From contig MCFE01000002.1 of assembly GCA_002104905.1 (NCBI GenBank), positions 248,001-312,000 of the forward strand: a stretch of 64,000 nt of DNA, read 5' to 3'. Positions 53,298-64,000 of this stretch are shown one piece after another (position 1 is the stretch's first letter; each line of letters begins with the position of its first letter). The stretch comes from Basidiobolus meristosporus CBS 931.73. Its lineage: Eukaryota; Basidiobolomycota; Basidiobolomycetes; Basidiobolales; Basidiobolaceae. The position numbers were made by a program, and so were the translations under genes. A model generated the notes under the pieces. It saw only the letters and a program-made list of their open reading frames with translations, was not told the origin of the DNA and did no database searches.

Positions 53298-54321
53298 ATG
53301 TCTACTACTGCTACTACTGGAATTTTTCCATCTGCTGAAAAGTTGGATGGATCTAACTACCAAGTGTGGAAGGTGAAGATGAAGATGCTGCTACAAGAAA
53401 GAGGCCTTTGTGATATTGCCATGGGCAAAGAATGCCCTCCTAAAAGTGTGGGAGCGGAAGACTTAAAGTACCAGAAGAAAGAACAAAGTGCCTTTAACTG
53501 CATTTGCCTTAATGTTAAAGACAAATTGCTCATTCAATGCTCAAGAGCAAAAATGGCAAAGAATGCCTGGAAGGCATTAGAAGACACCTACCAGTCATGT
53601 TCAGCTGCTAAGAAAATGTAACCAAGTCAAAAACTCTTTACTACAAAGATGCAGCCAGGAGAAGAAATGAAAAATCTAATTAACAGAAATACCCTGCCGG
53701 TAGATGAAATGGAATCTGTGGGTGTATCAACTACTGATGAGGTTGTGATAGTTACCATCCTGAATAACCTGACAGATGAGTTTCAGGGCCTTGTATCAGC
53801 CCTAGAGTCCAGAACTGAAGATTTGACCTTAATTTACATATATGGAAGGCTCTTGGATGAACAATTAAGAAAATCAAGCGCCAATCAGAAGGAAGTAGAA
53901 AATGCTTTAATAAGCAATGATAACCAACAAAGGAGGTACCCAAGACCCTACAATAGCAGCAGCAACCTGTTTTGCAACTACTGCAAAAGGAAAAGACACA
54001 CATCAGACTGGTGTCTCAAAAAGAGAGATAATCAGCAAAAGAAGCCTGAATATGGAAATGCAGCAACAACTGAAGATAGACTATACATATCTGCACTAAA
54101 TATGGCCACAAGCAAGGATTCTCAGATGTGGTACATTGACTCTGGAGCATCTCAGCACTTTACAAACCAAAAAGAGCTTTTTACCCAATTTCAACAAATT
54201 CCAATTAAGAAGGTTTTCCTGGGTGACAATGGAACACTTGATGCAGTGGAAGAAGGAACTAACCAAGTAAACCTTAGAAGCAGTGAAGGAAGCCATACAC
54301 TAACCTTGAAAGAAGTACTCA
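53298..54321 (+). pseudogene. Truncated Copia gag-protease pseudogene
   Basis: Parallel to the gag start of the intact element downstream and clearly related to it. Seen: a UBN2-type gag region; an in-frame stop at 53619-53621 after AAKKM; and a zinc knuckle CNYCKRKRHTSDWC in which the glycine of CX2CX4HX4C is replaced by Arg. The protease site WYIDSGASQHFT is still present. Similarity ends abruptly after the residues KEVL at 54321, where LINE sequence in the opposite orientation begins. It cannot encode a full polyprotein. Confidence 0.9.
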
Positions 54322-55109
54322 GCTTCTTCTTCACAACTGGTTGCATAGAAAGGGACCAGGCTGGGTGGTCAGAGGCTCTCAAGGATCCTAGCTCAGCTCC
54401 AGAGAATTGCTTAACTTCATTCACAAAGTAGAGGGCAGCAGCAGAAGGGCAGATCCAGTCAACACATCTTTTCTCAGATTGAGCACCTAGTGCTAGCAGA
54501 TGGCTTTCTCTCAGGAAGTTCAATAGGAATGTAGATCTTGGCTTCATTCTTGCAGTCAGAGTAGTCTTGTTCTCAGGATGGTGAATGTTGAGATCTCCAA
54601 GCAAGATAACAGGTGTTGATATAGATTGCTGGTATTGCTGAACTTTCTGGCATATAACTTGCACTTCCTGAAGGGCAAGACTTGGAGGCAGATAGCAGAG
54701 CACCAGACTGATAGTTGGCAACTGGAGAGCAGCACAGTAAGGGGAGTAAAGAGGAACACAGAGCTGAGGAGTATTGATGGTAGAAGAGATGAAGCAGATG
54801 GAGGAGGTATTCTTTGTTCTAGGAGTAGAAAAGTAATATAGATTAGTCAAAAGTATAGAGGGTAGCTGGACATCAATCAAACACAGGAGGGAAAGTTTTG
54901 AAAGAAGTCTCTCTAGAGTTGGTCTTGATGGCTGTATGCTGTTGCAGTTAAGCAACAGAACTTCAGGTAGTCAGGCAGAGGTTGTAGCTTCTTCAGAGGC
55001 AGCATTGACAATGTGACCTGCAGAGTCCCAGAGCTCTTCAAATGGTGCATCACTTAAGTCAGCAAGGAGAGAAATGGCATGATTCTTGAGGAAGTATGCC
55101 ACATCATAG
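54322..55109 (-). pseudogene. LINE fragment: ORF1 end and endonuclease part of ORF2
   Basis: Read on the minus strand, an ORF1 tail (SYDVAYFLKNHAISLLADLS ... EEATTSA, stop) is followed by an APE-type endonuclease. Motifs: LLLNCNSIQPSRPTLERLL; VILLGDLNIHHPE with catalytic Asp/Asn; VDWICPS; and RASDHPAW with the final Asp-His. The Glu of the usual LQET motif is not seen at its expected place (CLIDVQLPSILL). The reverse transcriptase is missing because the copy is cut at 54322. The same LINE continues at 59800-59876, the other side of the Copia insertion. Confidence 0.83.
55105..55109 (+). repeat. Target-site duplication CATAG (left)
   Basis: Five bases directly before the left LTR, repeated at 59795-59799 after the right LTR. 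Confidence 0.95.
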
Positions 55110-55458
55110 TGTTGTAAAAATTCGTATTTTCACCTAAATATTCACCTAACTTAGTCACTTAGATCATCATCTTCAAATCCTAGAGAATACTGACCAAATT
55201 CCTTGTCGGGATTTACTTAGAATATTTTCACCAAAATACCAGGTACCCAGAACATGAAAATTCTCAAAGTTGTCCAAACAGCCCCAAACTTTGCACACAT
55301 GTTCTTGGGACCTTCCTTAACCTATTCTACGTGTTTGTAATGCCAAGACCTTGTAAAAGTATAAATACTACTTTTACATTCAATAAATCATTAAGTGAAA
55401 ACCACATAATCTACTTGTTCTCCCAATCACTTCCAATATCTCCAAGACTCTTACAACA
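55110..55458 (+). repeat. Left LTR (349 bp)
   Basis: Starts TGTTG and ends CAACA, a short inverted repeat. The promoter TATAAATA lies at 55360-55367. Confidence 0.96.
55360..55367 (+). promoter_or_regulatory. LTR TATA box
   Basis: TATAAATA about 100 bp before the gag-pol ATG, also kept in the relic LTRs. Confidence 0.6.
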
Positions 55459-55470
55459 GGTTATGAGCCC
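55459..55470 (+). other. Primer-binding site for half-molecule initiator tRNA-Met
   Basis: GGTTATGAGCCC immediately follows the LTR. It is complementary to the anticodon stem-loop (GGGCTCATAACC) of eukaryotic initiator tRNA-Met, not to a tRNA 3' end. Known precedent: Drosophila copia and yeast Ty5 prime from a tRNA-iMet fragment cut in the anticodon loop. Confidence 0.75.
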
Positions 55471-58400
55471 CGAGCTGTCACTCTCTGCAATGTCTACTAC
55501 TGCTATTACTGGAATTTTTCCCTCTGCTGAAAAGTTGGATGGATCTAACTACCAAGTGTGGAAGGTGAAGATGAAGATGCTGCTACAAGAAAGAGGCCTT
55601 TGGGATATTGTCATGGGAGAAGAATGCCCTCCTAAAAACGTGGGAGAGGAAGCCTTGAAGTACCAGAAGAAAGAACAAAGTGCCTTTAACTGCATTTGCC
55701 TTAATGTCAAGGACAAATTGCTAATTCAATGCTCAAGAGAAAAAACGGCAAAGAATGCCTGGAAAGCATTAGAAGACACCTACCAGTCATGTTCAGCTGC
55801 CAAGAAAATGTATCTGAGAAGAAAATTCTTTACTACAAAGATGCTGCCAGGAGAAGAAATGAAAAATCTAATTAACAGAATTACCCTGCTGGTAGATGAG
55901 ATGGAATCTGTGGGCGTACCAACTACTGATGAGGATGTGATAGTTACCATCCTGAATAGCCTGACAGACGAGTTTCAGGGCCTTGTATCAGCCCTAGAGT
56001 CCAGAACTGAAGATTTGACCTTAAATTACGTATATGGAAGGCTCCTGGATGAAGAATTAAGAAAATCAAGCGCCAATAAGAAGGAAGAAGAAAATGCTTT
56101 AATAAGCAATGATAACCAACAAAGGAGGTACCCAAGACCCTACAAAGGCAACAGCAACCTATTTTGCAACTACTGCAAAAGGAAAGGACACACATCAGAC
56201 CGGTGTTTCAAAAAGAGAGATTATCAGCAAAAGAAGCCTGAATATGGAAATGCTGTAACAACTGAAGATAGACTATTCATATCTGCACTAAATATGACCA
56301 CAAACAAGGATTCTCAGACGTGGTATATTGACTCTGGAGCTTCTCAACACTTTACACACCAAAAAGAACTTTTTACCCAATATCAAGAAATTCCAATTAA
56401 GAAGGTTTTCATGGGTGACGATAGAACACTTGATGCAGTGGGAGAAGGAACTATCCAAGTAAACCTTAGAAGCAGTGAAGGAAGCCATACACTGACCTTT
56501 AAAGAAGTACTCTATGTACCAGAAATAGCCAAGAACCTACTCTCTGTAAGCAAGGCCACAGCAGAAGGACTCAGTTTCAGTTTTGACAATTCTGGATGCA
56601 GGATCACTGATCAAAATGGTGCCCATATTGCTTCGGGCATCAGAGATCAGAACCTATACAAGTTGACTTATATTCCATCATATCTGGAAGCCAATATAAG
56701 TAACTTAAATGAAGAAACACCAATGCTTTGGCACAGGAGATTTGGACACATCAATTTTGATTATTTGCGTAAAATGATCAAAGATCAGCTAATTTCTGGA
56801 GTGAAAATTGATCCCCCAGCTATTTTGGAGCACTGTGAAGCCTGCATATATGGGAAACAAGCCAGACAACCGTTCAAGAGCTCTGGGTTAATCAAAACTA
56901 AGAAAAAATTAGATCTAATTCACTCAGATCTGTGTGGACCTATGCAAAATTTATCCTTAGGCGGGATGAAGTATTTAATCACTTTTATTGATGATTATAC
57001 AAGATACACATGGGTCTACTTCATGGAGAGAAAGGAAGAAGCTCTGTCTAAGCTCAGGGAGTTCAAAGCCATGGTGGAGAGAGAAACTGGTGAAAAAATC
57101 AAGAAAATACGCTCTGACAATGGTGGAGAATATACCTCAAAACTCTTCATCCACTTCTGCAAAATTCATGGGATAAAGCAAGAGACTACTGTACCATACT
57201 CCCCACAGCAAAATGGAGTAGCAGAACGAGCTAACAGATCAATAATTGATATGGCAAGATCTATGATCCATGATCAAAAATTATCCTATGATTTTTGGGC
57301 GGAATCAGTTGCCACTGCTGTATATCTTAAAAATAGGAGTTATAACAGAATACTTCGTGATTCTACTCCATTTGAAGCATGGTATGGATACAGACCAAGT
57401 GCAGAACATCTAAGAATATTTGGGTGTACAGCATATGCCAAAAAACTGGCCGGAAATCAGTCAAAATTTGAGCCAAAAAGTGTAAAATGCATATTTTTGG
57501 GCTACTGCAATGAGAGTAAGGCATACAGACTCTACAATACCAAAGCAAAGAAGCTGATCAAGTCCAGGGATGTGTTGTTTGATGAAAATTCAAAATTTTC
57601 ACAAAAAATGACATCAGATGATGACGAAAATTTGATCTCAAGTCCACCAATTGTCAGGATTGAATCAGAGCAAAACAATGAAAACTTTTTCACTCCAGAG
57701 GACTCTACAACCGTGGTTCAGCCAGAATCAGTGCCCAGGAATATCCCAGAAGTGATCATTCCAGTATCAAATGCCCGGAGATCCAATCGGACAAGAAATA
57801 GCCCAAATTACTATATCAATGAGGGTACAAACTTAGCCTATGCCTATTCAGTCCATATTGATGAACCCCAGACTGTAAAAGAGGCCCTAAATAGCCCTCA
57901 GACGAAGTTTTGGAGATCTGCAATGACTGAGGAATATCAGGCACTGATGGAAAATCAAACTTGGGACTTAGTCAAATTACCAATCAACCGAAAATCAATT
58001 GGATGCAGATGGGTCTTCAAGACAAAATACAAGGCTGATGGTACAATTGAAAGATACAAAGCAAGACTTGTAGCCAAAGGATACTCTCAAACAAAAGGAC
58101 TTGACTATACTGAGACCTTTGCACTGGTAGCCAAGTTTAATTCCATCAGATTAATATTGGCTATTGCAGCCAAATATAAGTTTTTTATTCATCAAATGGA
58201 TGTAAAAACTGCATTTTTGAATGGAGAACTTGATGAGGACGTGTATATGGACCAGCCTGATGGGTTTGTGGACCAAGATAACCCCCATTTGGTCTGCAAG
58301 CTTAAAAAGTCACTATATGGTCTCAAACAATCACCGAGAGCCTGGAATTGCAAGATAGATTCTTATTTGGAATCTTTGAGTTTCAAAAGGAGTAATGCTG

Positions 58401-59434
58401 ACTATAGTATATACTATAAGCCAGATAGAGCAAATCCAGTTCTATTAGCTCTATATGTGGATGATCTTATTATAGCCGCCAATAACCTAGAAACATTGGA
58501 AGAGACTAAATCCAGCCTATCTAAGGAGTTCAAGATGTCCGATCTAGGAGAACTTAGTTACTACTTAGGGATTAAGTTCTCCATAGACAGAAGTACCCAG
58601 ACTATTACCCTAAGCCAATCCAAGTATATTCAAGATATACTAAAGAAGTACAAAATGGAAGACTGTAAACCGGCAGCTACCCCAATGGAGACAAACCTTA
58701 ACTTGGTCAAAACTCAACCAAATCAAGAGAGCTTGGTGCCATCTGAAAGCCCTGACTTTCCTTATCAATCTATGGTCGGCAGTCTGATGTATATCATGCT
58801 TGGAACACGTCCAGATATCTCATATTCAGTGGGAGTTGTCAGCCAACATAATCAGAATTATGGATCTGATCATATTGCAGCAGTTAAGCGGATTTTTAGA
58901 TACCTAAAAGGAACTGCTGATATCTGCTTAAGATACACTTATAAGGATTCAGAACAGGATCTTGTGGGATACTCTGATGCTGATTGGGGACGAAATTTAG
59001 AAGACAGAAGATCCACCACAGGATACACCTTTCTTTACTGTAAAGGAGCCATTTCATGGAATTCAAGAAAGCAACCAACCGTAGCACTTTCCACCACAGA
59101 GGCAGAGTATATGGCAGCCTGTGAAGCTACAAAAGAAGCAATGTGGTTAAGAAAGCTCTTTACAGATTTAGGCCTATGTCAAAAAACGCCTATTACTTTA
59201 TTTCAAGATAATCAAGGATGTATACAATTAGGTAGAAATCCAACTTTTCATGCTAGAACCAAGCACATAGATATTAGACATCATTTCATACGTGAAGCTA
59301 TAGAGAATAACTTAGTTAGCTTAGTTTACTGTCCTACAGATGAAATGATTGCAGACATATTTACCAAACCATTAGCTAGAGACAAGTTTGAATATCTTAG
59401 GTCAAAATTAGGACTAGTCAGTATGAACATTTAG
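55463..59434 (+). CDS. Copia gag-pol polyprotein
   Basis: One uninterrupted frame, open from 55331 in the LTR. The first ATG downstream of the LTR is at 55463 and a second at 55490 (MSTTAITGIFPSAEK) may be the real start. Seen in order (residues from 55463): gag with WKVKMKMLLQERGLWDI (about 30-210); zinc knuckle CNYCKRKGHTSDRC (about 235); protease WYIDSGASQHFT (about 288); integrase HHCC region with LWHRRFGHINFDYL then CEACIYGK, and DDE core HSDLCGPM, RSDNGGEYTS, QQNGVAERANR; reverse transcriptase with RWVFKTKYKADGTIERYKAR, QMDVKTAFLNG and LYVDDLIIAA (about 1000); and RNase H with GYSDADWG, STTEAEYMAACEA and RTKHIDIRHHFIRE. All catalytic residues that I can check are present. At about 1,320 codons it is full length. 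Confidence 0.95.
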   Translation: MSPELSLSAMSTTAITGIFPSAEKLDGSNYQVWKVKMKMLLQERGLWDIVMGEECPPKNVGEEALKYQKKEQSAFNCICLNVKDKLLIQCSREKTAKNAWKALEDTYQSCSAAKKMYLRRKFFTTKMLPGEEMKNLINRITLLVDEMESVGVPTTDEDVIVTILNSLTDEFQGLVSALESRTEDLTLNYVYGRLLDEELRKSSANKKEEENALISNDNQQRRYPRPYKGNSNLFCNYCKRKGHTSDRCFKKRDYQQKKPEYGNAVTTEDRLFISALNMTTNKDSQTWYIDSGASQHFTHQKELFTQYQEIPIKKVFMGDDRTLDAVGEGTIQVNLRSSEGSHTLTFKEVLYVPEIAKNLLSVSKATAEGLSFSFDNSGCRITDQNGAHIASGIRDQNLYKLTYIPSYLEANISNLNEETPMLWHRRFGHINFDYLRKMIKDQLISGVKIDPPAILEHCEACIYGKQARQPFKSSGLIKTKKKLDLIHSDLCGPMQNLSLGGMKYLITFIDDYTRYTWVYFMERKEEALSKLREFKAMVERETGEKIKKIRSDNGGEYTSKLFIHFCKIHGIKQETTVPYSPQQNGVAERANRSIIDMARSMIHDQKLSYDFWAESVATAVYLKNRSYNRILRDSTPFEAWYGYRPSAEHLRIFGCTAYAKKLAGNQSKFEPKSVKCIFLGYCNESKAYRLYNTKAKKLIKSRDVLFDENSKFSQKMTSDDDENLISSPPIVRIESEQNNENFFTPEDSTTVVQPESVPRNIPEVIIPVSNARRSNRTRNSPNYYINEGTNLAYAYSVHIDEPQTVKEALNSPQTKFWRSAMTEEYQALMENQTWDLVKLPINRKSIGCRWVFKTKYKADGTIERYKARLVAKGYSQTKGLDYTETFALVAKFNSIRLILAIAAKYKFFIHQMDVKTAFLNGELDEDVYMDQPDGFVDQDNPHLVCKLKKSLYGLKQSPRAWNCKIDSYLESLSFKRSNADYSIYYKPDRANPVLLALYVDDLIIAANNLETLEETKSSLSKEFKMSDLGELSYYLGIKFSIDRSTQTITLSQSKYIQDILKKYKMEDCKPAATPMETNLNLVKTQPNQESLVPSESPDFPYQSMVGSLMYIMLGTRPDISYSVGVVSQHNQNYGSDHIAAVKRIFRYLKGTADICLRYTYKDSEQDLVGYSDADWGRNLEDRRSTTGYTFLYCKGAISWNSRKQPTVALSTTEAEYMAACEATKEAMWLRKLFTDLGLCQKTPITLFQDNQGCIQLGRNPTFHARTKHIDIRHHFIREAIENNLVSLVYCPTDEMIADIFTKPLARDKFEYLRSKLGLVSMNI

Positions 59435-59436
59435 CT

Positions 59437-59445
59437 GAGTGGGAG
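59437..59445 (+). other. Polypurine tract
   Basis: GAGTGGGAG directly abuts the right LTR and is the expected plus-strand primer. Confidence 0.75.
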
Positions 59446-59794
59446 TGTTGTAAAAATTCGTATTTTCACCTAAATATTCACCTAACTTAGTCACTTAGAT
59501 CATCATCTTCAAATCCTAGAGAATACTGACCAAATTCCTTGTCGGGATTTACTTAGAATATTTTCACCAAAATACCAGGTACCCAGAACATGAAAATTCT
59601 CAAAGTTGTCCAAACAGCCCCAAACTTTGCACACATGTTCTTGGGACCTTCCTTAACCTATTCTACGTGTTTGTAATGCCAAGACCATGTAAAAGTATAA
59701 ATACTACTTTTACATTCAATAAATCATTAAGTGAAAACCACATAATCTACTTGTTCTCCCAATCACTTCCAATATCTCCAAGACTCTTACAACA
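59446..59794 (+). repeat. Right LTR (349 bp)
   Basis: Same as the left LTR except for one base near position 243 of the repeat. Confidence 0.96.
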
Positions 59795-59799
59795 CATAG
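59795..59799 (+). repeat. Target-site duplication CATAG (right)
   Basis: Matches 55105-55109. Removing the element and one copy restores an open LINE ORF1 frame (minus strand). Confidence 0.95.
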
Positions 59800-59876
59800 G
59801 AGGCTTGTCTCTTGATGCAGCAAAGAAAGACAGAATGCAACATGAGCTGGAGGCTTGTTGACAGTAGAGAGTCAGG
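59800..59876 (-). pseudogene. LINE ORF1 fragment, continuation across the Copia insertion
   Basis: The minus strand reads SLQLMLHSVFLCCIKRQASY straight into the sequence on the far side of the Copia element. Its 5' end meets TTAGGG at 59877-59882, so this LINE copy is itself 5'-truncated and capped by telomeric sequence. Confidence 0.7.
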
Positions 59877-59882
59877 TTAGGG

Positions 59883-61476
59883 AGGGAAAGTCACCAAGTT
59901 GGTGAAATCTTTATTTGGTTAAGAACTAATCTAAGTACAAATAAAGAAGCCAATTAAGGGTCTAGAACCTCTCTAATAAGTAATCTAATTTATGTTTTGT
60001 TTCATCTCTAATGTTTGTTTCAATAAAGTAAAGCTCATCAGGGGTAAATATAAAATTCAGGGGTTTTGGGGGAAGTACAAATTGTAGATATTTCTGATCA
60101 ATATAATCAAGACTGGAACCCAGCCTGGGATTAGGTGTAGTAGGAAAGGTGTGTGGACTTGTAAGTAGCTCTGCCACATAGATCTTAGATGGTCCTGAGC
60201 CAGTAGTCTTGGTTTCTCAGCTTTTTGAAGTTTTGAAGCAAGCTCTGTTACTACAGCAGAGCCAACCAGGGTGTGCCAGCAAGAAGATTTCAGGGAGGAG
60301 TTAGATTGAAGCCATTGTTTGATGGAGGGGTTATGTGATTTCTGAAGTTTGACTAGGAAGGAAGCCCGGAGATAGATCATTCGGATTTGGTATGGGTAGA
60401 ACCCAAAGGCTCCATTAGTTGCATGGATATAGGGAGATACTGGAAGATAAGGTACCAAGGATCTGATACACTGATGGAGAAATTTATCCAGGCGGTGAAG
60501 TTCTCTGGAGGTTAGGGGTATAATGTGGAGACCAAATTCAAGTACTGGCAGCACATACTGCTTCAGAAGTATAGGGATCTTTTGAATTGGAGTGTCTGGA
60601 GTGACTACTACCAGAAGCTTTTTGAGAGCCTGTTGGGCAAGACGGATCCTATTATTCAGGTGGAGCTTTGAGTCAATCCCATGTTGACAAAACGGCAGAC
60701 CTAGATATATTGCAGTTTGTTGTGGCAGAATGCTAGTGTTCTGTATAGTTGTAGTGCATCCAATTGGGACTGTCTTGGAAATTGAGAGTGAGAGGTTGTT
60801 GGCAGCCAAGTACTTCTCAATGATGGCAGTGTCTGCTATGGGATTAGGAGTAGCAATCTTGATATCATCCGCATAGAGAGTTAGTAGTGGATAGGGAGAG
60901 TCTGGTGAGGGGCCTTTTGGAAATAAAGGAAAGTCATGTAGGAATATCACAAATAGTAAGGGACCTAGTACAGATCCTTGGACTACTCCATTTTGAACCT
61001 CATAAGTCTCTGATGTGCAACTTGGATGCAAAATTTTGGCTGAGTTCTCACAAAATAGAGAACGTACAAGAAGGGTCATTGGTAGTGTGGTAACTGCTAA
61101 TAGCTTTCTCCAAAGCAGAGCTCTGTCCACAGAGTCAAAGGCTTTAGTAATGTCAAACAGAATGGTTGGCAATGAGAATTGAAGTGAATGATCATGGCTT
61201 AGCACTACAGCCATATCCAAGGAGAGTTTGGGCAAGAAGCCAAACTGAGAAGGATGGAATGGATATAGTTGAGATTGCAAGGATCTTGCTATCATAAGCT
61301 CAAAGATTTTCCGGCAGGTTGGTAGGAGTGAAACTGGCCGGTAAGAACCTGGGAGTGAGTGTTTCCCCTTCCCTTTGTATAAGGGTATTACATTTGCCTG
61401 TGACCAGGCCTTTGGGGTAGTCAATTGTTGGGCACAGATAGAGTAGAATGGGAGAAGTAAGTGACTCATTTTGGAG
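59883..61476 (-). mobile_element. Telomere-inserted LINE copy 1, 5'-truncated
   Basis: Minus-strand non-LTR element. Its 3' end abuts TTAGGG (59877-59882) and its 5' end abuts TAGGGGG (61477-61483). It contains the reverse-transcriptase ORF and a 3' UTR that ends with AATAAA, the stem-loop TCACCAAGTTGGTGA (plus-strand 59891-59905) and a short C-rich end. There is no poly(A) tail. Endonuclease and ORF1 are absent. Confidence 0.85.
59962..61476 (-). pseudogene. LINE reverse transcriptase, copy 1 (frameshifted)
   Basis: Seen: KAWSQANVIPLYKGKGKHSL; SYRPVSLLPTCRKIFELMIA; QFGFLPKLSLDMAVVLSHDH; FDITKAFDSVDRALLWRKLL; NGVVQGSVLGPLLFVIFLHD; LTLYADDIKIA with the catalytic YADD; and a long C-terminal region with HQCIRSLVPYLPVSPYIHAT. 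The frame opens inside the element next to copy 2 and lacks everything before the fingers domain. Near the 3' end the frame used up to QVHTPFLLHLIPGW stops at 60057, but homology to copy 2 continues in another frame down to 59962 (PPKPLNFIFTPDELYFIETN), which indicates a frameshift at about 60130-60160. Confidence 0.85.
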
Positions 61477-61483
61477 TAGGGGG

Positions 61484-63073
61484 AGACAGTCACCAACTGG
61501 TGAAATCTTTATTTCAGTTGAAACAAAGAAGCCAGCGCTACTGTTGTAGCTTTGATACAAGAGTGTGTAGCTGAGGGGAATTTGTAGGTAAGTTAATAAG
61601 AAGTGATGATAGCTCTTCAGTGCTCAAGACACTGTTCAGTGGGAAGGGGGGTAGCAAGAGAGGTAAGAATGACTTGTGAACAACATTAATGAAGGGAATG
61701 TGATAAGGATTGATATTCATCATAAATGGAGTGTGCTGCTGCAGATATTGCTGCCAAAGGTCTGTCAAGTACTTCAGGTAGGCCAGCTTGGGTTTTTCTG
61801 ACTGCAGAATAAAGTGAGCAAACTTCTTGACTTCAGGATCTCCAAGTATAGTTCTCCAGCAGGAGCCAGGTGTTGTGTGGTGTGTTCTCTTCCAGGCCTT
61901 AATCAGTGGGTTGTTGCAGTTGTGAAGTCTGAGGTATAATCTGGTTCTAAGGTAGAGAAGTCTGATCTTATAGGGCATAAACCCAAAAGCACCAAGAATA
62001 GCATGTCTGTAGGGGCATTCAGGCAAATGAGGCACCAAGGAGGTAATGCACCATACTGCAAACTTGTCAAGCTTAGTGCAGTCTCTAGAAGTAAGAGAGA
62101 GAAGTGGTAAGCCAAATTCCAGGACAGGGAAGACAAACTGCTTGAGTAGAAGGAGGCAGCTGGGAGCTGAAGTTGTAGGAGGAGTAACAGCCAACAGCTT
62201 GTGGAGTGCCTGTCTTGCAAGGATAATTCTCTTCTTCAGGTGTGCTCCAGAGTCTAGTCCAGTAGGAAGGAAAGGAAAGCCAAGATATGTAGCAGAAACC
62301 TGAGCAGGTAGAGTGGAGTTCTCCAAGATGATGGGAGAGCCCAAAGGTACTGTCTTTGCAATGGAAAGCTGGAGATTATTCTTCTGCAGATACTGGTGGA
62401 TGGTCTGGGAGTCTTGTTGCACATTGGAGGAGGATATTCTGATGTCATCAGCAAAGAGAGTAACCAGGCAGTCAGCTGAGAGTCTTGGGAAGTCATTCAG
62501 GAAGATGGCAAACAGTATAGGACCAAGCACAGAGCCTTGAACCACTCCATTAGGAACTGAGAACACAGCTGATTGCTCACTTGGGTGCAGAATTCTTGCT
62601 TGTGGATCCAGAAACAGAGACCTGACAAGGAGGGTGAGAGAGGTACTGGAGAAGCATTGCAACTTGGACCAAAGCAGATTTCTGTCAACTGAATCAAGGG
62701 CCTTAGTAATATCAAACAGAACAGAGGGATACTTGCACTGGAGAGAGTGATCTTGGCTAAGTATGACTGCATATTCCAAGAAGAGGCCAGGAACAAAGCC
62801 AAACTGTGCAGGATGAAACTTGAGGGAGTCAGAGTAGAGCTCCTGAGCAAGCAGAAGCTCAAACACCTTTCTGCAGGTGGGCAGCAGAGATATTGGCCTG
62901 TAGGAGCTAGGATCCAGGTGCTTTCCTTTACCCTTATACAGTGGCAGAACATTTGCAAAGGACCATTCCTCAGGAGTAGAAAGCTGGGCTGAGCATTGCT
63001 GAAACAGTGGAAGCAGAAGTGCAGACATGGCCTTGGTACTAGTCTTCAGAAGCTCATAGGAGATTGTGTCCAC
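61484..63073 (-). mobile_element. Telomere-inserted LINE copy 2, 5'-truncated
   Basis: Head-to-tail with copy 1. The 3' end abuts TAGGGG (61477-61483) and the 5' end abuts TTAGGG (63074-63079). The tail again has AATAAA and a stem-loop TCACCAACTGGTGA (61490-61503), a changed loop and conserved stem relative to copy 1. The coding part is well diverged from copy 1, so two LINE lineages share one tail. Confidence 0.85.
61538..63073 (-). CDS. LINE reverse transcriptase, copy 2 (5'-truncated, frame open)
   Basis: 511 codons open from the truncation point to the stop. Seen: DTISYELLKTSTKAMSALLL (domain 0/1 start); YKGKGKHLDPSSYRPISLLP; QFGFVPGLFLEYAVILSQDH; FDITKALDSVDRNLLWSKLQ; NGVVQGSVLGPILFAIFLND; VTLFADDIRIS with the catalytic FADD; CITSLVPHLPECPYRHAILG; and a C-terminal helical end LHTLVSKLQQ. 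No zinc knuckle or RNase H follows. The opening codon (GTG beside TTAGGG) is only the truncation edge, so no native start exists here. Clade cannot be fixed by eye; Jockey/R1/I-like RT motifs with an APE endonuclease upstream are the best guess. Confidence 0.87.
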   Translation of the reverse strand: MDTISYELLKTSTKAMSALLLPLFQQCSAQLSTPEEWSFANVLPLYKGKGKHLDPSSYRPISLLPTCRKVFELLLAQELYSDSLKFHPAQFGFVPGLFLEYAVILSQDHSLQCKYPSVLFDITKALDSVDRNLLWSKLQCFSSTSLTLLVRSLFLDPQARILHPSEQSAVFSVPNGVVQGSVLGPILFAIFLNDFPRLSADCLVTLFADDIRISSSNVQQDSQTIHQYLQKNNLQLSIAKTVPLGSPIILENSTLPAQVSATYLGFPFLPTGLDSGAHLKKRIILARQALHKLLAVTPPTTSAPSCLLLLKQFVFPVLEFGLPLLSLTSRDCTKLDKFAVWCITSLVPHLPECPYRHAILGAFGFMPYKIRLLYLRTRLYLRLHNCNNPLIKAWKRTHHTTPGSCWRTILGDPEVKKFAHFILQSEKPKLAYLKYLTDLWQQYLQQHTPFMMNINPYHIPFINVVHKSFLPLLLPPFPLNSVLSTEELSSLLINLPTNSPQLHTLVSKLQQ

Positions 63074-63079
63074 TTAGGG

Positions 63080-63602
63080 GGGGAGGAAAGTCACCAAGTG
63101 GTGAAATCTTTATTTACTTATGACAAGTATCTAAAGAAGCCAAGTTAATCTGAAGTAATTCCTAGAAAGCTAGGTCTGAGAGATATCTTCCTGGTAAGCC
63201 AGGTCTGAGAGTTGAGAAGCTGAGTGGTACTATATTTCCTAGTTAGCTAGGTCTGAGAGAGGTTTCCTGGAAAGCCAGGCCTGAGAAGTGAGAATCTGAA
63301 TATATCTGAGCTAAGTTTTACTGGTTTGCGGTAGCTGAATTGTGGCCGGAATGGCCAGTAGACTGGGGGAACTGAGATGAATTTCTGGGCGATCACTGGC
63401 CAAATTTACTAGGCAAATCTGACCAATTAGCATTTCAAGGATTTCAGCCAATCAGAGCCTTTACTTTGCCCGATGGTTGATCAAGCCATCTCCCAATGAG
63501 CACACATCAATTTATTGATCAAATTTTGCTGGATCCAGGATTTGAACCCACAACCATGGGTATGAAAGGGTTAGGGATAACCACAAGGCTAAGTGTTCTT
63601 GG
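63080..63602 (-). mobile_element. Telomere-inserted SINE-like element, long copy
   Basis: About 520 bp between two telomeric tracts. On the minus strand: a tRNA-like head with Pol III boxes (63538-63591), a non-coding body, four hairpins of the type CCTRG-CTNN-CYAGG (63161-63279), AATAAA, the stem-loop TCACCAAGTGGTGA (63091-63104) and a C-rich end beside TTAGGG. The last 45 bases match the LINE tails, the classic tRNA-SINE design in which the SINE borrows the LINE 3' end. There is no ORF. Confidence 0.8.
63538..63591 (-). promoter_or_regulatory. tRNA-like internal Pol III promoter (A and B boxes)
   Basis: Minus strand: A box TAGCCTTGTGG (63581-63591; one mismatch to TRGYNNARNGG), then 32 nt, then B box GGTTCAAATCC (63538-63548; full match to GGTTCRANNCC). 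The D-arm-like GTGGTTATCCC and a CAT in the anticodon-loop position suggest descent from a tRNA. Stems are imperfect, so it is not called as a functional tRNA. Confidence 0.7.
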
Positions 63603-63632
63603 TTAGGGTTAGGGTTAGGGTTAGGGTTAGGG
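63603..63632 (+). repeat. Telomeric repeat (TTAGGG)5
   Basis: Five perfect TTAGGG units on the plus strand. G-rich strand running rightwards means the chromosome end is to the right. Confidence 0.97.
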
Positions 63633-63809
63633 GAGGAAAGTCACCAAGTGGTGAAATCTTTATTTACTTATGACAAGTATCTAAAGAAGCCAAGTTAATC
63701 TGAAGTTATTCCTAGAAAGCTAGGTCTGAGAGATATCTTCCTGGTAAGCCAGGTCTGAGAGTTGAGAGGCTGAGAGGTACTATATTTCCTAGTTAGCTAG
63801 GTCTGAGGG
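63633..63809 (-). mobile_element. 5'-truncated SINE copy B
   Basis: Near-identical to the 3' third of the long SINE, with the shared stem-loop at 63641-63654. It is cut just after the third hairpin and joined to TTAGGG, so the head and promoter are lost. Confidence 0.9.
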
Positions 63810-63830
63810 TTAGGGTTAGGGGTTAGGGGG
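63810..63830 (+). repeat. Short telomeric tract between SINE copies
   Basis: TTAGGG, TTAGGGG and TTAGGGGGG-type units, slightly irregular. Confidence 0.9.
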
Positions 63831-64000
63831 GAGGAAAGTCACCAAGTGGTGAAATCTTTATTTACTTATGACAAGTATCTAAAGAAGCCAAGTTAATCTG
63901 AAGTTATTCCTAGAAAGCTAGGTCTGAGAGATATCTTCCTGGTAAGCCAGGTCTGAGAGTTGAGAAGCTGAGTGGTACTATATTTCCTAGTTAGCTAGGT
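63831..64000 (-). mobile_element. SINE copy C, runs off the window
   Basis: Same sequence as copy B with the stem-loop at 63839-63852. It shares with B the T in 'gaagTtatt' that the long copy lacks. It stops at the window edge inside the third hairpin, within a few bases of where copy B is truncated. Confidence 0.88.

What the first reader, a model, noticed from the sequence alone, without database searches (positions are those of the whole stretch)
59877..64000. Head-to-tail array of telomere-directed non-LTR elements in a fungus
Seen: five successive elements (LINE 1, LINE 2, SINE A, B, C), all on the minus strand, each with its 3' end joined to a TTAGGG unit or TAGGGG remnant on the centromere side (junctions near 59882, 61482, 63079, 63632, 63830). 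Known: Drosophila HeT-A/TART and silkworm TRAS/SART target chromosome ends. MoTeR elements of Magnaporthe are the fungal precedent I know, but they are of the restriction-enzyme-like-endonuclease type, whereas the LINE fragment here carries an APE-type endonuclease. Inferred: a distinct telomere-specific retroelement system that may take part in end maintenance.
Basis: partly seen in the sequence, partly recalled or inferred. Interest (0 to 1): 0.92.

Follow-up and report, generated by a model that had tools for sequence, protein, structure and literature searches.

The report
Jumping genes stacked at chromosome ends
The chromosome ends of an early-branching fungus (Basidiobolus) are stacked with over a thousand one-way copies of several related jumping genes, including protein-coding ones and short parasites of them, all attached to the telomere repeat by the same short tail; the nearest fungal examples use a different kind of DNA-cutting enzyme.

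Summary
The window is the right end of C424 (312,558 bp), a contig with telomere repeats at both ends, in a Basidiobolus assembly (species inferred: B. meristosporus). Genome-wide the tail pattern matches 1,521 times (lower bound); TTAGGG+tail matches 1,415 times (some copies twice), CCCTAA+tail 0 times. In the 11 contigs over 100 kb whose tails are fully listed, 37 of 37 tails lie within 22.2 kb of an end with the 3' end inward; 85 of 85 identifiable neighbours are head-to-tail. C424 has mirror-image arrays at both ends, which argues against chimera. At least five families share a 3' stem-loop tail: LINEs A and B (B with an APE-like nuclease and RT), two ORF1-only elements (D, E) and a ~528-bp SINE-like element (C). 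In B, ORF1 and ORF2 share a frame, split by UGA-CUA (99 of 100 listed copies), with no AUG before the nuclease: probable stop-codon readthrough. A telomerase domain is encoded and ends are TTAGGG-capped, so replacement of telomerase is not supported; rescue of short ends is open. I read it as target-primed insertion onto the telomeric G strand: MoTeR- and TRAS-like behaviour, separate APE-type lineage.

The parts
54320..55109 (-). Family B LINE fragment: end of ORF1, UGA stop (54971-54973 on the + strand) followed by CUA, and start of ORF2 with APE-like nuclease (open frame 54191-54970)
   Evidence: 98.5% to a long B copy; Exo_endo_phos_2 E 1.8e-5, just under Pfam's cut-off; TGACTA context
55110..59794 (+). 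Copia LTR retrotransposon inserted into the B copy; LTRs 346 of 347 compared positions equal; 5-bp target duplication CATAG
   Evidence: not one of the telomeric families
59798..59875 (-). Rest of the split B copy (ORF1 part), ending at the junction
59877..59882 (+). TTAGGG unit joining the B fragment to the 3' end of family A
59883..61476 (-). Family A LINE (LINE 1), 5'-truncated; RT open frame 60057-61508
   Evidence: 94% to an A copy on C1; RVT_1 E 1.3e-21
61477..61483 (+). TAGGGGG junction
61484..63073 (-). Family B LINE (LINE 2), 5'-truncated; RT open frame 61538-63073
   Evidence: 98% to a long B copy; RVT_1 E 8.5e-23
63074..63083 (+). TTAGGGGGGG junction
63084..63602 (-). Family C SINE-like element (SINE A), full length by comparison with other copies, box A/B-like 5' head
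63603..63632 (+). Five TTAGGG units between SINE A and SINE B
63634..63806 (-). Family C SINE, 5'-truncated (SINE B)
63807..63831 (+). GGGTTAGGGTTAGGGGTTAGGGG-type junction
63832..64000 (-). Family C SINE (SINE C); continues about 350 bases past the window to the TTAGGG cap at the contig end (312,558)

Best explanation
A set of telomere-specific non-LTR retroelements. Family B (and probably A) encodes the machinery: ORF1 (zinc-ribbon-like motif, coiled coil, C-terminal domain) and, by readthrough of a leaky UGA-CUA stop, ORF2 with an APE-like nuclease and reverse transcriptase. The enzyme recognises a 3' stem-loop tail (UCACC-loop-GGUGA, then a C-rich end) and copies any RNA that carries it, so ORF1-only elements (D, E) and a short SINE-like element (C) are moved in trans. 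The 3' hydroxyl of a telomeric TTAGGG strand (a nick or the natural overhang) primes copying, which fixes the direction: element 3' end toward the centromere, 5' end toward the tip. Often the copy is cut short at its 5' end; telomerase then re-caps the tip with TTAGGG, and the next element lands near the base of the new cap. Repetition gives head-to-tail arrays at chromosome ends. Shown: orientation, junction sequence, shared tail, end-confined position, coding content, UGA-CUA in the copies, a TERT domain. Inferred: trans-mobilisation, priming, readthrough, re-capping.
For: Junctions: 120 examined on 37 contigs; 100 have a complete TTAGGG before the element's 3' end, 19 only AGGG or TAGGG (some may be chance), 1 the variant TTTGGG; genome-wide 1,415 TTAGGG+tail matches versus 0 CCCTAA+tail. 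Position: 37 of 37 tails in 11 contigs over 100 kb lie within 22.2 kb of an end (median 4.1 kb), 37 of 37 point inward (from the list). Mirror arrays at both capped ends of C424. Head-to-tail: 85 of 85 identified neighbours, 35 of 120 not identified. Caps start on truncated elements in phases (TTAGGG, TAGGG, AGGG) like those of inner junctions. Hairpin in 14 of 14 tail variants folded. Recent activity: 36 pairs of family-B ORF2 copies, dS 0.01-0.12, dN/dS 0.19-0.84; one E pair dN/dS 0.26, nonsynonymous deficit p 3e-5 under an assumed neutral share of 0.76. UGA in 100 of 100 listed copies (133 matched), CUA after it in 99; first Met of ORF2 at residue 142, after the GDxN motif at 125. UGA CU(A) is an efficient readthrough context in fungi (PMC4207609, passages read).
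Against: The APE domain scores below Pfam's curated cut-off (25.0 against 27.4 bits at best seen for Exo_endo_phos_2) and gives no hit to solved APE structures by sequence; where LINE nucleases have a catalytic Glu (recalled) all 8 B copies that cover the site have Asp, as do relatives P0123 and P0124. No structure could be predicted. The B copies are young, so a kept UGA is weak proof of selection, and the pattern asked for exact flanks; relative P0123 begins with Met just before the nuclease, so readthrough may not be used there. No transcript, protein or insertion event was seen.
Confidence: 0.8

Rival explanations
1. End-healing: elements do not cut DNA but add themselves to critically short or broken chromosome ends (endonuclease-independent priming), perhaps with the single TTAGGG supplied by the RNA's own 3' end. 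The arrays would then be a back-up to telomerase, close to HeT-A.
For: 35 of 120 junctions follow sequence assigned to none of the families. Asp for Glu in the nuclease.
Against: Short tracts have another published reason: in MoTeR arrays tracts of three or more TTAGGG break, and stable ones hold at most two (PMC7367193, passages read). GDxN and SDH are kept in the B copies that cover them. TERT domain present.
Confidence: 0.25
2. Arrays were multiplied mainly by recombination or break-induced replication between chromosome ends, with few true insertions.
For: C22 and C25 carry a D copy cut at the same base (715) just before the cap; on C96 five SINE junctions follow each other at 526-534 bases (list). 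Such events are described for MoTeR.
Against: The 5' break points of the 37 B neighbours are all different, G runs at junctions vary from 3 to 10, and the order of families differs between the ends listed.
Confidence: 0.12
3. Non-specific elements that merely survive best at gene-poor ends.
For: Copia copies lie there too.
Against: A TTAGGG-type junction in 119 of 120 (19 of them short) and one orientation throughout; tolerance alone gives neither.
Confidence: 0.02
4. Assembly chimera.
For: Contigs of only 16-20 kb carrying such arrays are common in the sample. Raw reads were not seen.
Against: C424 is capped at both ends with mirrored arrays; the same junction recurs on 37 contigs.
Confidence: 0.01

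Closest known systems
MoTeR1/MoTeR2 (Magnaporthe/Pyricularia oryzae) and FoTeR (Fusarium oxysporum)
   Same: Fungal, embedded in TTAGGG, 5' end toward the tip, head-to-tail arrays with tracts from half a unit to more than 20 (MoTeR), a defective partner sharing the ends (MoTeR2), an LTR element inserted into arrays (PMC7367193 passages, PMC12857005 sections 16, 18, 19)
   Different: Those are CRE/SLACS-related with a REL nuclease; here no REL motif, an N-terminal APE-like domain, two ORFs split by UGA-CUA, ORF1-only and SINE-like partners
TRAS and SART (Bombyx, R1 families)
   Same: LINEs that insert into telomere repeats beside telomerase-type sequence (PMC10088271, passages read); APE-type nuclease is recalled
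   Different: R1-clade membership not testable here; host is a fungus; SART1's ORF coupling by UAAUG is recalled, not UGA-CUA; SINE-like and ORF1-only partners not named in the passages I read
HeT-A, TART, TAHRE (Drosophila)
   Same: Same direction on the chromosome and an element with ORF1 only (HeT-A) beside RT-bearing ones (both recalled)
   Different: Drosophila lacks telomerase; here a TERT domain and TTAGGG caps are present
Zepp (Chlorella), Tx1-1_ACar (anole)
   Same: Other telomere-associated LINEs
   Different: No sequence comparison was possible
Tail-sharing SINEs (LINE/SINE pairs; recalled)
   Same: SINE shares its 3' tail with LINEs of the genome
   Different: Here the pair is aimed at telomeres; no listed title or abstract start named such a SINE

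Membership tests
Telomere-specific non-LTR retrotransposons (functional class) | RT of non-LTR type | tested here: met
   RVT_1 E 2.2e-25; profile to LINE-1 ORF2p E 1.4e-21, to R2 3.2e-8
Telomere-specific non-LTR retrotransposons (functional class) | 3' end fused to telomere repeat, one orientation | tested here: met
   100 of 120 full TTAGGG, 19 a shorter stretch, 1 TTTGGG; 0 wrong-way
Telomere-specific non-LTR retrotransposons (functional class) | Confined to chromosome ends | tested here: met
   37 of 37 within 22.2 kb in 11 contigs over 100 kb; other contigs not examined for distance in this way
MoTeR/FoTeR (CRE clade) | REL nuclease with zinc knuckle and RHD/N | tested here: not met
   0 of 6 proteins match the motif; motif taken from PMC12857005. 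Not a member
TRAS/SART (R1 clade) | APE-type nuclease | tested here: inconclusive
   Exo_endo_phos(_2) E 1.8e-5 to 0.023 over five proteins, all under the cut-off; GDxN and SDH present; Asp where Glu is usual
TRAS/SART (R1 clade) | RT groups with R1 clade | not testable with these tools
   No named R1, Tad or Jockey RT at hand; own clade 100/100 on a 1.87 stem
HeT-A/TART/TAHRE | Elements replace telomerase | tested here: not met
   TERT domain and TTAGGG caps
tRNA-derived SINE | tRNA-related head | tested here: inconclusive
   Box A 9/11 and box B 11/11 to consensus recalled by me (5 of 2000 shuffles, 2 of 798 genomic windows reach it), but no Rfam tRNA match and no ARAGORN gene at the SINE
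LINE-dependent SINE | 3' tail shared with a LINE of the same genome | tested here: met
   36 nt at 92% to B, 58 nt at 84% to the D tail in one segment
Stop-codon readthrough | Leaky stop context with an essential in-frame domain after it and no other start | tested here: met
   UGA 100 of 100, UGA-CUA 99 of 100 listed of 133; no AUG before the nuclease motifs in the copy on C47
Stop-codon readthrough | Readthrough product made | not testable with these tools
   No protein or reporter data; relative P0123 starts with Met near the same place

The most novel reading that the evidence does not exclude
Basidiobolus runs a mixed end-maintenance system: TTAGGG from telomerase plus an APE-lineage LINE whose RT, made only by UGA-CUA readthrough, caps critically short or broken ends with its own RNA and with two kinds of passenger RNA (ORF1-only and SINE-like), each carrying a common telomere-docking stem-loop; a fungal counterpart of HeT-A/TART that arose beside a working telomerase.
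Probability: 0.22. Interest if true: 0.92.

Novelty: new variant of a known kind. Interest (0 to 1): 0.75.

Why it matters
The fungal telomere elements that I could read about (MoTeR, FoTeR, Cnl1) are placed in one REL-type clade. A separate APE-type lineage doing the same in an early-branching fungus would mean that the niche was entered independently in fungi. The passengers (SINE-like and ORF1-only) are natural minimal substrates that point to what the enzyme needs: some 36-60 bases of tail. The puzzle of why nearly all tracts keep only one or two TTAGGG units makes the question whether such elements cut telomeres or rescue short ones testable in a fungus with a telomerase gene.

Tried and rejected
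Rejected: REL/CRE (MoTeR-type) membership, no motif; telomerase replacement; chimera; random placement. Led nowhere: Rfam and ARAGORN on the SINE head; APE domain against solved structures by sequence; naming the RT clade, because most protein hits are unnamed. The RT tree used 46 rows, 8 of this lineage and 38 picked by me from the hits; its tool warns that a long branch (P0126) joins the clade. A structure of ORF2 was never obtained.

Limits of the counts. The genome's pattern counts are lower bounds by the tool's own statement, and where there are more than 100 places only the first 100 are listed. TTAGGG+tail matches count a copy twice where two units lie within the gap. The A-like count is of a three-base loop and holds a few other loops. 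The 120 junctions come from tail copies with at most two mismatches, in 41 loci (L010-L030, L033-L052), with at least 60 bases of upstream sequence; near-identical chromosome ends were not collapsed, so they are not 120 independent events. In one search pairs with the C32 frame include unrelated frame ends, which inflates some values (dS up to 0.124). Right contig ends were read in 18 cases (11 capped by more than 60 bases); of five left ends fetched, two begin with CCCTAA repeats and three do not. Recalled and from no call: the box A/B consensus, the LINE nuclease motifs and their Glu, HeT-A's content, SART1's UAAUG.

Full report
Setting. The window is G000:C424:248001-312000 of an 89.0-Mb assembly in 1,311 contigs. 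A window gene is 85% identical to a Basidiobolus ranarum protein, the best named hit, and the RT frame of LINE 2 matches proteins named Basidiobolus meristosporus CBS 931.73, one at 98% over 47% of the frame; the species is inferred from this. C424 ends 558 bases past the window in about 204 bases of TTAGGG and begins with CCCTAA repeats, so it is capped at both ends.

Observation. The five elements and junctions are as described, except that the APE-like piece lies outside the interval, in another family-B copy at 54320-55109/59798-59875 that a Copia element has split (LTRs 346 of 347 equal, CATAG duplication).

Genome-wide tests. The pattern GTCACCAA-N1-6-GTGAAATCTTTATTT occurs 1,398 times forward and 123 reverse, 0 for the reversed control. 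With TTAGGG within 14 bases on the centromere side: 1,324 and 91, some copies twice. With CCCTAA instead: 0. By family tail pattern: B 631, SINE-like 358, D 211, A-like 170, E 34; lower bounds. In the 11 contigs over 100 kb among those fully listed (up to C91), 37 of 37 tails lie within 22.2 kb of an end (median 4.1 kb) with the 3' end inward. The left end of C424 has five minus-strand tails at 652-2911, each with a TTAGGG-type junction, the mirror image of the right end.

Junctions. Of 120 junctions on 37 contigs, 100 have a full TTAGGG, 19 only AGGG or TAGGG and 1 TTTGGG; 8 match the telomere for 11 or more bases past the G run; G runs are 3-10 long. Of the neighbours on the centromere side, 85 belong to the families and all 85 are head-to-tail; 35 were not identified. 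The 37 B neighbours are cut at 37 different 5' points; 24 of 30 SINE-like neighbours reach within 22 bases of the reference's 5' end. Of 18 right contig ends reached, 11 end in 96-240 bases of TTAGGG, 1 in about 42, 6 in none. Where the base of the cap could be assigned it is fused to truncated B, D or SINE-like copies or to a full-length SINE-like copy, in phases like those of the inner junctions.

Families. B: about 4.57 kb (long copy on C3); ORF1 of 502 aa from its first Met with a CPNCG zinc-ribbon-like start, a coiled coil and a C-terminal domain (no Pfam match over a cut-off); ORF2 of 922 codons with RVT_1 and sub-threshold APE-family matches. ORF1 and ORF2 share a frame, separated by UGA-CUA: 5 of 5 fetched copies that cover it; genome-wide 133 matches, of which the 100 listed all have UGA, 99 with CUA. 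The first Met of ORF2 is at residue 142, past the GDxN motif, so the nuclease can hardly be made from an AUG; UGA CU(A) is leaky in fungi (PMC4207609, passages). Against this: the copies are young, and relative P0123 begins with Met near the same place. Only one paper held all my terms on readthrough and non-LTR elements, a general recoding review that I did not open. A: RT frame of 483 aa in the window; database protein P0006 is 70% identical to A and 52% to B. D and E: at least 0.90 kb and about 0.94 kb, one frame of 242 and 266 aa from Met, homologous to the C-terminal part of B's ORF1 (E 4e-21 and 2e-17; 42% to each other), the tail following within about 120 bases. The E copies on C45 and C23: dS 0.17, dN 0.045, nonsynonymous deficit p 3e-5, which suggests selection on a protein in an element without RT; it is one pair. 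C: about 528 bp, with box A/B-like sites but no tRNA model hit. F: one copy, not studied. The 14 tail variants folded all form the same small hairpin.

Lineage. A, B and five unnamed database proteins form one clade (100/100) on a long stem; A groups with P0006 and B with P0003, so the two lineages split before these sources did. Against solved structures the profile fits LINE-1 better than R2. The Asp in place of the usual Glu is shared by P0123 and P0124, hence not decay of single copies.

Mechanism. First-strand synthesis from a TTAGGG 3' hydroxyl explains direction, junction and phase together. The TERT domain (two pieces, one with an in-frame stop that may be an intron) and the caps argue that telomerase closes the tips. 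The short inner tracts can be read as rescue of short ends or as survivorship, since in MoTeR arrays stable tracts hold at most two units and longer ones break. I prefer insertion near the cap base plus loss of long tracts, and leave rescue at about one in four.

Known. The fungal telomere elements that I found in print are MoTeR, FoTeR and relatives, REL-type. No listed title or abstract start in the searches pointed to APE-type telomere LINEs or telomere-directed SINEs in fungi. Of these results I opened parts of PMC12857005, PMC10088271, PMC4700185 and PMC7367193 only; subscription journals and Repbase are not held, so priority is not proven.

Noticed in passing
whole assembly: TTAGGG triplets are 8002 forward against 103 reverse, and tails 1398 against 123: most telomeric contigs are written with the telomere on the right. 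Perhaps a habit of the assembly; unexplained.
   Followed up: partly
window 54971-54973 (minus strand) and 133 matches genome-wide: UGA-CUA between ORF1 and ORF2 of the family-B LINE, a probable readthrough site in a non-LTR element.
   Followed up: yes
L019 4873-5670, L029 3496-4293, L025 4413-5138: ORF1-only elements of about 0.90-0.94 kb with open frames, comparable in content to HeT-A (recalled).
   Followed up: partly
window 55110-59794: Young Copia element (LTRs 346/347, TSD CATAG, one long open frame) inserted in a telomeric LINE.
   Followed up: partly
C22 and C25 right ends: Two ends carry a D copy cut at the same base before the cap, a sign of exchange between chromosome ends or of haplotypes.
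   Followed up: no
L030 1363-1434: A tRNA-Thr gene within 7 kb of a chromosome end.
   Followed up: no
C880:173109-173423: TERT RNA-binding domain in two pieces, one with an in-frame TAG, perhaps an intron.
   Followed up: no
SINE A, 63156-63299: Two internal units of 65-68 bp, 84% alike, made of short hairpins such as CCTAGCTAACTAGG.
   Followed up: no
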